Assembly: GCF_000025625.1 (NCBI RefSeq)
Contig: NC_013923.1
Location: 62,001-126,000, forward strand
DNA length: 64,000 nt
Source: Natrialba magadii ATCC 43099
GTDB lineage: Archaea > Halobacteriota > Halobacteria > Halobacteriales > Natrialbaceae
Direction of reading: 5' to 3'
Part shown: positions 11,891-15,016 of the stretch, in pieces
Position numbering within the stretch: the stretch's first letter is position 1
How the letters are laid out: every line of letters begins with the position of its first letter
Made by a program: the position numbers and the translations under genes
The notes under the pieces: model-generated
Seen by the model: the letters and a program-made list of their open reading frames with translations, nothing else
What the model was told of the DNA's origin: nothing
Databases searched by the model: none

Positions 11891-12042
11891 TTATGACCGG
11901 TTCCTTTAATATGAACACTCTGTGTTCACGAGCGACTATTTGCCTCTGAGAACCACCACAGCAGATTCAGCCGATCACATCAACTATACCGGCAACCAGA
12001 ACAGTAACCCTTCAAAATTGGACAACACGAATTGGCCTAGAA

Positions 12043-12312
12043 TCAACCTCCGCTCGTTGACTCTTCTAACTCGTCGGCGTCGAGTTCACCTTCCAGATAC
12101 TTTTTCCCTTGCTCAGTGATCTCGTAATACCCTTCTTCAGGGCACGCTACGAGTCCATACCTCTGGAGTTCTCTCAGTCGGTCACTCACTGTAACGCGAT
12201 GTTTGTCGATGTTCTTCGCAATTGCAGTTGGACCAAGCAGTAACCCGGTGTCGAGAATCTCTAACACTCTGTCGTCAGTCGGATTCTGCATCCAACCTCC
12301 GGGCTTTCTCAT
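12043..12312 (-). CDS. PhiH1-repressor-like winged-helix protein
   Basis: An 89-residue HTH protein: MRKPGGWMQNPTDDRVLEIL leads into a winged helix (LGPTAIAKNIDKHRVTVSDR, RLRELQRYGLVACPEEGYYE, ITEQGKKYLEGELD). Proteins with this start and size are common repressor-like regulators in haloarchaeal genomes and proviruses. An internal Met 7 codons in is an alternative start. A perfect 12-bp palindrome at 12389-12400, about 77 nt upstream, could be its operator. Confidence 0.7.
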   Translation of the reverse strand: MRKPGGWMQNPTDDRVLEILDTGLLLGPTAIAKNIDKHRVTVSDRLRELQRYGLVACPEEGYYEITEQGKKYLEGELDADELEESTSGG

Positions 12313-12388
12313 TAGTTCGAACTCGCAGAACCAGTGCTTACATCCATCGAAATACCAGAATTTGGTTGCTATATCGGAATCTATCTAT

Positions 12389-12400
12389 TACGATATCGTA
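12389..12400. promoter_or_regulatory. Perfect palindrome TACGATATCGTA
   Basis: A 12-bp dyad in the AT-rich gap upstream of the 12312 HTH gene. Small HTH repressors often bind such sites in their own promoter. This is an inference from position only. Confidence 0.3.
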
Positions 12401-12545
12401 GCTACATTTATTACAATGGAGTCTAGAATGATTGTCTAACGGGAGATTCCGTACGTCCAACTATTCGTTGGGAAGTGCGGCAAAATGCGAGTCGGTGGTA
12501 GTGACACCGGCCCGCAGCGGCTCCCGTAATCACGGTACGGAAGCC

Positions 12546-12653
12546 ATGTCCGACAAGCATCCACGGGGCCTTGAAGGTCCCGACCGACCAGACGCATCAC
12601 TCGAGTACCCACCTCATTCCAGCCCCTCGCCAGCGGGTGATCGTCATGCCTAG
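12546..12653 (+). CDS. Possible small ORF overlapping the RuvC-protein start
   Basis: The 35-codon ORF MSDKHPRGLEGPDRPDASLE continues to a TAG at 12651-12653. It overlaps the ATG of the next gene (ATGCCTAG), a coupled-translation arrangement. The high Pro/Asp content is compatible with a real small haloarchaeal protein but equally with leader sequence. No ribosome binding site is evident. Confidence 0.25.
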   Translation: MSDKHPRGLEGPDRPDASLEYPPHSSPSPAGDRHA

Positions 12654-13368
12654 GGTCGCCCCCGAGGTGACTGCCGCCGACCGCACTGCGACCGCGACCG
12701 CGATCGGCGTCGACCTCGGTGAGTACAACCTCTACACCGCCTGCCCGGCCACGATGCCGGACTGGAAGGGAGCCTACGCAATCTGCGGCGACGACCTTTG
12801 CACCCGCCTGGACGAGCTCCGCGCACAGGTCGCCCACCTGCTCGGTAGCGAGTACGACCGCGAGACGATCACCGCGTACGTCGAGCAACGCCGCACCGCG
12901 CTTCTCGAGCGTCTCGACGACGCCGCGCGAACCATCTGCGACTACGCGAGCGCGTACGACCGGCCCGTGCTGGTCACCGAGAACAGCCACTTCGAGCCCG
13001 ATCTCTGGGCGTGGCTGACCGATCCCAACGCCCACCGCGGGACGGCGTGGCTCCTCCCGGCGGCGCAGCTCCGACTCCGAGCCGTCGCCGCCGTGTACGC
13101 CATCGAGGTGACGACCGTGCCGGTGTCCTACTCCTCGCAGGAGTGTCACGCCTGCGGCGTCATCGGCGAGCGCGCCCAGAGTCCCTCGTTTCGCTGCACG
13201 AATCCTGACTGTGCCGTCGGCGTCGTCTCCGCGGATCACAACGCCGCGAAGGTCCTCGCACAGCGGTACTATCCCGGCCAGCGCTGTGCCTACCAGCCGT
13301 CGAACTCAGACACGGCAGCCACAGACACTGCTCCAGCGCCCGTCCCCGACGGTGGTTCACCACAGTAG
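12646..13368 (+). CDS. TnpB-derived stand-alone RuvC nuclease with zinc ribbon
   Basis: A 240-residue protein that matches only the C-terminal half of TnpB, the RNA-guided nuclease of IS200/IS605 elements. The RuvC parts are complete: D23 (AIGVDLGEYNLY), E112 (VLVTENSHFEPD) and D197 (VSADHNAAKVL). A CxxC...CxxxxC zinc ribbon is inserted as usual (C167, C170, C184, C189; ECHACGVIG, RCTNPDC). The N-terminal WED/REC half that holds the guide RNA in TnpB is absent, and the protein begins directly at the first RuvC strand. Keeping the three acids argues against simple decay. Neither a TnpA gene nor flanking element ends is seen. A GC-rich coiled-coil gene follows 200 bp downstream on the same strand. 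A longer TTG start at 12571 is possible but adds a poor tail. Confidence 0.65.
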   Translation: MPRVAPEVTAADRTATATAIGVDLGEYNLYTACPATMPDWKGAYAICGDDLCTRLDELRAQVAHLLGSEYDRETITAYVEQRRTALLERLDDAARTICDYASAYDRPVLVTENSHFEPDLWAWLTDPNAHRGTAWLLPAAQLRLRAVAAVYAIEVTTVPVSYSSQECHACGVIGERAQSPSFRCTNPDCAVGVVSADHNAAKVLAQRYYPGQRCAYQPSNSDTAATDTAPAPVPDGGSPQ

Positions 13369-13568
13369 AACGCCTGCCCCACCGTCACCGAGTGCCGACG
13401 ATCGAACTGGGCCACTGCCACGACTCACGCCCAAATCGCGTACACGTAGATCGGTTATCGTTCGCGCTGCGCCGTCGAGGCCAGCGGCCCCACGGTCTCC
13501 CACGGCACGCCCGCTGTCTCGCCTTCCAACTGCCCACCGACACACCCCACGATACATCCACGATCACG

Positions 13569-14540
13569 ATGAGCACCAACTCCGAGCACGCGACCGCCAC
13601 TGACACAGACACCGGTACCGACACCAATACCAGCACCGTCACCGGCACTGACACAGACGCAAAAACCGCCACCTGCACCAACACCAGCACCGACACCAAC
13701 ACCACCCCAGACGAACCGACCACCCACTCACTCGCCACCGAACTCGAGTCCCTCCGAAATCGACTCGAGACACTCGAGTCCACCCTCGAACAGAAAACTG
13801 CCCGGATCGAGCACCTCGAGCAGGAACTCGACCGCACCCGGGCGGAAAACGAACGCCTCGAGAGCCGCGTGACCGAACTCGAGGAGACGCGAGCCCCCAA
13901 CGAGGCGATCGAGGCACGACTGGACGCCCACGAAAAGAAACTCGCGGCGAACAAAGCGCGCGTCAGCGAACTCCAGGCGCGCGAACTCGAGAAGGGTGCC
14001 CACCTGCTCGAATCCCACGTCGATCCCAGTACAATCGACGTCACCGATGGTCGCCTCGAGCGGATCACCAAGGACGACGGCGCGCAGTACGTCCGCCTGC
14101 CTGAGAGCGATGACCCACTCGAGCGCGGTGGCGACGTCGCCGTTGCCCACGGCGATCTGCTCCCGGTGCAGCAACTCGCGAGGATGGACGACGAGATGCG
14201 TCGTGCGACGACGTCTGCCCTCCCCGTCCGACTCGCGGCGCACCTCTGGAAGGCTCGCACTGATCCGAGCGTCGGCGATAACCCGTGGAAACAGGGGTGC
14301 AAGAACGTCCGCGAGTACGTCACGGCGAGCGACATGAAACACTGGATCCGCAGACAGGAATCGGGGATCAGCGACACATACGCGAAAAAACTCGTCTCGC
14401 GAACGATCGACGCACTCCTCGATCTCTCGCGGAATCGGCTGGCGATCAGGCGCACCAGCCAGCGAAAGAACGGACTCGAGTACACCGAGCGTCGCGTTCT
14501 GCTGCCGGCGGATGCGGCGATTCCAGGTGAACGGCTGTGA
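13569..14540 (+). CDS. Coiled-coil protein with conserved C-terminal (winged-helix-like) domain, partner of the RuvC protein
   Basis: A 323-residue protein in three parts. Residues 1-55 are Thr/Asp/Asn-rich and disordered. Residues 58-140 form a long coiled coil (LESLRNRLETLESTLEQKTA; LEQELDRTRAENERLESRVT). Residues 150-323 are globular, with DEMRRATTSALPVRLAAHLW, NVREYVTASDMKHWIRRQES, YAKKLVSRTIDALLDLSRNR and a basic tail RRTSQRKNGLEY, which looks like a DNA-binding helix-turn-helix. I do not recognise a named family, though the C-terminal domain looks well conserved in style. The ATG at 13569 starts the acidic composition; upstream codons in this frame are Arg/His-rich and unlikely to be coding. 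A 33-bp repeat array begins at its stop codon. Confidence 0.6.
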   Translation: MSTNSEHATATDTDTGTDTNTSTVTGTDTDAKTATCTNTSTDTNTTPDEPTTHSLATELESLRNRLETLESTLEQKTARIEHLEQELDRTRAENERLESRVTELEETRAPNEAIEARLDAHEKKLAANKARVSELQARELEKGAHLLESHVDPSTIDVTDGRLERITKDDGAQYVRLPESDDPLERGGDVAVAHGDLLPVQQLARMDDEMRRATTSALPVRLAAHLWKARTDPSVGDNPWKQGCKNVREYVTASDMKHWIRRQESGISDTYAKKLVSRTIDALLDLSRNRLAIRRTSQRKNGLEYTERRVLLPADAAIPGERL

Positions 14541-14712
14541 CGATTGGGATGCCGCGATGACACGTGGCCGCAACGATCGAGAGAGCCCAATAGCACGTGG
14601 CTGTGACGACCGGTACGGCCCGGTGACGCGTGGCTGTGACGATCGGAATTGCCCGGTGACACGCGTCTGTGACGACCGGTACGGCCCGGTGACACGTGGC
14701 GTCGATGGCTGA
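14528..14712 (+). repeat. 33-bp tandem repeat array, five units plus a partial
   Basis: Units start at 14528, 14561, 14594, 14627, 14660 and 14693 (partial). The best-conserved unit contains TGGCTGTGACGACCGGTACG and GCCCGGTGA. The array begins over the last codons of the coiled-coil gene and runs 170 bp past it. Each unit reads as RGCDDRYGPVT in one frame, but there is no convincing start, so a non-coding role (binding array, RNA, or slippage) is as likely. There are no spacers, so it is not a CRISPR. Confidence 0.85.
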
Positions 14713-15016
14713 GACTGTCGGCGGCAGGCACACGCTACCCTGAGAAGGGATTCGACTCTCCAGACGGGACAGGAATCCAGCGCGATGCGGCTGTCAGTGC
14801 GTCCGGCTACTCGTGAGTCTGTCACTCGATCGGTCGTCGACGGTCCGCACCGAGCGACGGTTCGAGAGCGGCCACTGAAGACGTCAGGTGTCTCCGGGAA
14901 CTGCTGTGTTGTAACGCGCTCTTGTTGAACTCTGTCGGTACAGCGGAGAGTTACTTCCTTCTAACCGACCCATGGAATTCAGCAGATATACAGTACAGCG
15001 ACAGCGTGTGTCAGGT
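14713..15016. other. Intergenic stretch, nothing recognised
   Basis: Between the 33-bp repeats and the next small membrane protein I see no gene or clear RNA. A promoter-like AGCAGATATACAG at 14981-14993 precedes the following ATG by about 25 nt. Confidence 0.5.

What the first reader, a model, noticed from the sequence alone, without database searches (positions are those of the whole stretch)
12646..14712. Stand-alone RuvC nuclease derived from TnpB paired with a coiled-coil DNA-binding-like protein: candidate new system
The 240-residue protein keeps all three RuvC acids (D23, E112, D197) and the zinc ribbon but lacks the guide-RNA-holding N-terminal half of TnpB. It has no TnpA, no element ends, and is followed on the same strand by a 323-residue coiled-coil protein with a conserved-looking basic C-terminal domain, then a 33-bp repeat array. 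Loss of the RNA-binding part with retention of the active site is the opposite of TnpB-like repressors (TldR), which lose the RuvC acids. I infer a domesticated nuclease that is guided by a protein partner. Defence, plasmid control or recombination are all possible.
Basis: partly seen in the sequence, partly recalled or inferred. Interest (0 to 1): 0.75.

Follow-up and report, generated by a model that had tools for sequence, protein, structure and literature searches.

The report
Domesticated TnpB nuclease in regulated operon
Salt-loving archaea have kept only the cutting half of a transposon's RNA-guided nuclease and placed it, next to a DNA-binding-like protein, behind a repressor and a hairpin-rich leader that in other places control DNA recombinases; this points to a repurposed, tightly controlled DNA-cutting enzyme whose target is unknown.

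Summary
The window is plasmid pNMAG01 of Natrialba magadii. The 240-aa protein is a TnpB/Cas12-type RuvC domain without the WED/REC half. It belongs to one monophyletic, single-breakpoint family (35 loci in 25 of 125 Natrialbaceae genomes; not found in other haloarchaeal families sampled). D23/E112/D197 and four zinc cysteines are intact in 49 of 50 sequences and dN/dS is well below 1, so it is not decay. The coiled-coil partner, with a predicted winged-helix end, follows in 24 of 35 loci. But the partner is far commoner (83 of 125 genomes) and usually lacks RuvC, so this is not a dedicated two-protein system. Essentially every compact RuvC locus has it. Of 21 head loci examined away from partners, 18 encode tyrosine recombinases. 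Best reading: a domesticated, repressor-controlled nuclease in exchangeable DNA-processing cassettes; recruitment by the partner is plausible, not shown. The 33-bp array is the expanded, frameshifted coding tail of the partner.

The parts
12043..12312 (-). Divergent 89-aa winged-helix protein (annotated as PhiH1 repressor / winged HTH in relatives); constant part of the cassette
   Evidence: ORF; weak wHTH matches in Pfam/NCBIfam; homologue upstream of every compact RuvC locus examined except L064 and in 21 of 21 other leader loci
12481..12607 (+). Three-hairpin structured leader (hairpins about 12486-12516, 12519-12545, 12564-12582), ATG at 12546 directly after the second hairpin
   Evidence: Model R1 match 133 bits, E 8e-36; covariation; no Rfam match; hairpin 2 motif absent from 100 shuffles of the window
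12546..12653 (+). Short ORF (35 codons) starting after hairpin 2 and overlapping the RuvC start; probably the remnant of a longer first gene seen in L074/L079
   Evidence: Nearly all codon changes among four species alter the residue, so no sign of selection on the peptide; in L074/L079 the same start opens a PadR-like protein
12646..13368 (+). Compact RuvC nuclease of TnpB origin, 240 aa, D23/E112/D197 and zinc ribbon intact, no WED/REC half
13569..14540 (+). Coiled-coil protein (coiled coil about residues 50-141) with predicted winged-helix-like C-terminal domain (about residues 191-318)
   Evidence: AlphaFold pLDDT 81; weak winged-helix matches Z 4-6; homologues in 83 of 125 family genomes
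14532..14712 (+). 33-bp repeats: tandemly expanded, out-of-frame remnant of the partner's coding tail (...GPVTRGVDG*)
   Evidence: TRF; alternative frame compared with tails of homologues

Best explanation
The RuvC gene encodes a domesticated DNA nuclease, cut down from TnpB once in the Natrialbaceae and kept active. It sits in a modular operon whose constant head is a divergent winged-helix repressor plus a three-hairpin leader, most likely the structured 5' end of the mRNA. Because the same head precedes tyrosine recombinases and the coiled-coil/winged-helix protein elsewhere, the nuclease most likely serves DNA recombination or plasmid/mobile-element processing and is normally held off by the repressor. 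With WED/REC gone it cannot hold an omega-RNA and read a TAM in the TnpB way; specificity most likely comes from DNA structure or, in the 24 loci that have it, from the partner's winged-helix domain. Shown: conservation, active-site retention, single origin, operon anatomy, covarying leader. Inferred: nuclease activity, repression by the winged-helix protein, recruitment by the partner, role in recombination.
For: 35 loci, one clade with 100/99 support, uniform start just before RuvC-I; DED plus four Cys intact in 49 of 50; dN/dS 0.07-0.38; Cas12f/TnpB fold; divergent wHTH plus leader at essentially all RuvC loci; same head before tyrosine recombinases in 18 of 21 sampled loci; partner coiled coil with winged-helix-like end; in plasmid L064 a RuvC fusion is preceded by an overlapping RHH/HTH protein.
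Against: No activity or binding data. The partner usually occurs without RuvC and 11 RuvC loci lack it. The winged-helix match of the partner is weak. Several group-2 copies are imperfect or decayed (L161, L162, L210). The shared head could be plain regulation that says nothing about function; the 21 leader loci were high-scoring picks and not a random sample.
Confidence: 0.42

Rival explanations
1. Protein-guided two-component nuclease: the partner recognises a DNA site or invading DNA and recruits RuvC to cut it, as a defence or plasmid-exclusion system.
For: Partner directly downstream in 24 of 24 group-1 loci; predicted DNA-binding fold; mostly on plasmids.
Against: Partner mostly without RuvC, other proteins in the middle position; RuvC group 2 without partner; no informative PADLOC match for the partner, coiled-coil matches only.
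Confidence: 0.2
2. The leader RNA is a guide or scaffold that binds RuvC (or the partner) and forms a reduced RNA-protein nuclease.
For: Covarying structured RNA-like element at all but one compact RuvC locus.
Against: The element also precedes recombinases and partner-only units, lies upstream of and overlaps coding sequence, and shows no variable guide segment; no conserved RNA 3' of RuvC, where an omega-RNA would lie.
Confidence: 0.07
3. The three hairpins are DNA operator palindromes of the winged-helix repressor and not an RNA structure.
For: Compensatory changes also keep a DNA dyad; the element adjoins the divergent repressor gene in all cases.
Against: Kept one-sided changes are G-U pairs, hairpin 1 of the R1 subtype has a conserved internal mismatch, and an ATG follows it invariably; numbers are small.
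Confidence: 0.25
4. Truncated, decaying tnpB fragment carried along by chance.
For: One clearly decayed relative, L210, and imperfect copies such as L161 and L162.
Against: Single clade with uniform breakpoint, purifying selection, conserved active site and synteny.
Confidence: 0.04

Closest known systems
TnpB (IS200/IS605/IS607 RNA-guided endonuclease) and Cas12f
   Same: RuvC fold, D/E/D active site and TNB zinc ribbon
   Different: No WED/REC half, no conserved RNA 3' of the gene, fixed operon with wHTH and leader
TldR (TnpB-like dead repressors; recalled from general knowledge, no paper read)
   Same: Domesticated TnpB derivative, fixed next to other genes
   Different: Opposite loss: TldR keeps guide binding and loses catalysis; here catalysis is kept and the guide-holding half is lost
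HRAMP (haloarchaeal RAMP) loci, PMC8730458
   Same: A second compact TnpB-type RuvC family (L055-L059) lies beside a RAMP-like gene
   Different: That family is a separate clade; the window operon has no RAMP gene
Haloarchaeal tyrosine recombinase loci with a PhiH1-repressor-like gene
   Same: Same divergent winged helix and leader head
   Different: Downstream enzyme is a RuvC nuclease and/or coiled-coil protein instead of a recombinase

Membership tests
TnpB RNA-guided endonuclease | RuvC active site D/E/D and TNB zinc ribbon | tested here: met
   49 of 50 sequences; PF07282
TnpB RNA-guided endonuclease | N-terminal WED/REC half that binds omega-RNA and TAM | tested here: not met
   Family starts just before RuvC-I; TnpB domain layout from PMC10097598
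TnpB RNA-guided endonuclease | omega-RNA overlapping or following the 3' end of the gene | tested here: not met
   Sequence conservation falls right after the stop codon among four close species
TnpB RNA-guided endonuclease | RNA-guided double-strand cleavage | not testable with these tools
   Needs protein work
TldR (TnpB-like repressor) | Loss of RuvC catalytic residues | tested here: not met
   D/E/D conserved
HRAMP (haloarchaeal RAMP) system | RAMP (Cas5/Cas7-like) genes in the locus | tested here: not met
   Conserved neighbours of the window family are wHTH, leader and coiled-coil protein; RAMP-like gene only beside the other compact family
Known RNA family (Rfam 15) | Covariance-model hit of the leader region | tested here: not met
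   No match at E up to 5 in 11900-14900
Known anti-phage defence system (PADLOC-DB) | System-specific protein models | tested here: inconclusive
   RuvC hits only Cas12-type models over its C-terminal part, partner hits only coiled-coil regions

The most novel reading that the evidence does not exclude
The three-hairpin leader is a functional RNA component: compact RuvC, with the leader RNA and/or the coiled-coil protein standing in for the lost WED/REC half, forms a new kind of reduced RNA-protein nuclease, and the same RNA head also serves recombinase cassettes across haloarchaea.
Probability: 0.07. Interest if true: 0.92.

Novelty: new variant of a known kind. Interest (0 to 1): 0.62.

Why it matters
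It shows a TnpB domestication route opposite to TldR: the guide-holding half is discarded and the cutting half is kept, apparently twice in haloarchaea (this family, and the separate family beside RAMP-like genes). It also exposes a widespread haloarchaeal control module, a winged-helix gene plus a covarying three-hairpin leader found in 95 of 125 Natrialbaceae genomes, in front of nucleases, recombinases and a DNA-binding-like coiled-coil protein. Both are directly testable: how a TnpB RuvC domain works without a guide, and what the leader does.

Tried and rejected
Decay: rejected (single clade, uniform breakpoint, selection). Dedicated two-protein system: weakened by the partner's wider distribution. 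The 33-bp array as iterons or a separate repeat element: replaced by an expanded coding tail. Leader ORF as a conserved peptide: substitutions are nearly all non-synonymous. omega-RNA 3' of RuvC: no conservation seen. Viral collection scans: nothing with RuvC; one, then four partner loci, including one in a 49-kb plasmid with provirus-like gene content. Phage records hold only full TnpB of ISH12-type elements. Partner against PDB: generic coiled coils by sequence, weak winged-helix matches by fold. Literature searches found no description of a RuvC-only TnpB family among the papers held; the HRAMP source paper was not held. No complex structure could be predicted.

Full report
IDENTITY AND OBSERVATION. 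The window lies at G000:C2:62001-126000; contig sizes of 3,751,858 and 378,348 bp match the chromosome and pNMAG01 of Natrialba magadii ATCC 43099 (PMC3403918). The RuvC protein matches PF07282 (5e-9), TnpB/Cas12 models only over its C-terminal part, and Cas12f/TnpB/Fanzor structures by fold, although the model is only moderately confident.

A REAL FAMILY, NOT DECAY. The first search of relatives showed compact homologues of about 60-96% identity in several genera. A profile search of 125 Natrialbaceae genomes found 35 loci in 25 genomes. A class-wide sample of 292 genomes found it only in the same family. In a 66-row tree the family is one clade (100/99), apart from full-length TnpB and from a second compact clade. 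Members start just before RuvC-I. D23/E112/D197 and the four zinc cysteines are intact in 49 of 50 sequences; the exception, L210, is a decayed copy. dN/dS to the window copy is 0.07-0.38. The genome holds a second copy at G000:C2:9756 with the same arrangement.

THE PARTNER. It follows RuvC within about 1.2 kb in all 24 loci of RuvC group 1 (profile scores above 410 bits; L163), and is absent from the other 11, most of which lie beside gas-vesicle genes in Natrinema. The partner occurs in 83 of 125 family genomes, often in several copies, and in other haloarchaeal families (70 of 292 class genomes in all). It was found on 45 plasmid records, against four records with a close RuvC. AlphaFold gives a long coiled coil and a C-terminal domain with winged-helix-like topology, with only weak structural matches, Z 4-6. 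In one genome of about 49% GC (G045) it is the main ORF of a 1.34-kb unit present six times at 87-92% identity. In cassettes without RuvC, other proteins take the middle position.

THE CONSTANT HEAD. A divergent 89-aa winged-helix gene precedes every RuvC locus examined except L064. Between it and RuvC lies a region more conserved than its short ORF explains; nearly all codon changes there alter the residue. It forms three hairpins, with an ATG immediately after the second. Covariation is clear: in 47 sequences 99.7% of cells pair and 35 cells show changes on both sides, against 9.5 in shuffles and 0-7 when the pairing is slid. Key pairs are C-G to G-C in the second hairpin and G-C to A-U in the third. 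A second subtype with other sequence but the same order of hairpins covers the remaining RuvC loci. Kept one-sided changes are G-U pairs, which favours RNA over DNA dyads, but they are few. Rfam has no match. The leader occurs in 95 of 125 family genomes, up to 12 copies each. Of 21 leader loci chosen away from partners, all have the divergent winged helix and 18 encode a tyrosine recombinase.

MECHANISM. In TnpB the WED and RuvC domains bind the omega-RNA scaffold and WED/REC reads the TAM (PMC10097598). With that lobe gone the protein cannot target as TnpB does, yet the active site is under selection. A head shared with recombinases suggests DNA recombination or plasmid/mobile-element processing under a repressor. 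The partner, and in plasmid L064 an overlapping RHH/HTH protein, are candidate DNA-recognition subunits. Activity, repression and recruitment are inferences.

THE REPEAT ARRAY. The 33-bp repeats read in an alternative frame as ...RGCDDRYGPVTRGVDG*, matching the tails of other partners; L071-L073 show the same out-of-frame tail. It is an expanded coding remnant.

LIMITS. Nothing about expression or activity could be tested. E-values of the home-made RNA models are rough. The 21 leader loci were high-scoring picks and not a random sample; one integrase was checked against Pfam, the others by similarity to it. No systematic scan for TnpA or element ends was made. The statement on TldR rests on general knowledge.

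Noticed in passing
L059 (G000:C1:2864365-2864976) and L055-L058: A second, separate compact TnpB-type RuvC family (221-227 aa, D/E/D and zinc ribbon kept) on Natrialbaceae chromosomes; 4 of 5 loci have a RAMP-like gene (weak PF03787, TIGR03986) directly after it and all 5 a conserved small gene before it: a likely HRAMP-type locus.
   Followed up: partly
L177-L182 (genome G045): The partner homologue is the main ORF of a 1.34-kb unit present six times, dispersed, 87-92% identical, all six ORFs intact; the right end is sharp (TTCCGGTGACGACACCTGTCACCGGA), the left end less so, no target duplication seen.
   Followed up: partly
L188, L192-L206, L208, L209: Tyrosine recombinase genes downstream of the same divergent winged-helix plus three-hairpin head, several copies per genome in Natrinema.
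   Followed up: partly
L053, L155, L157-L160, L210: Partner-less RuvC copies sit convergent to gas-vesicle genes (gvpO/gvpN/gvpA-like by inspection); the copy in L210 is decayed.
   Followed up: partly
L064 (NZ_CP084477.1, 7042-10193 of the locus): In a 57.9-kb Natrinema plasmid the RuvC domain is the N-terminal part of a 735-aa protein whose start touches the end of a 314-aa RHH/HTH protein; no wHTH/leader head or partner found there.
   Followed up: partly
L096, L119, L122, L150, L183, L184: Partner genes occur in tandem or clustered copies, some truncated, suggesting local duplication of the cassette.
   Followed up: no
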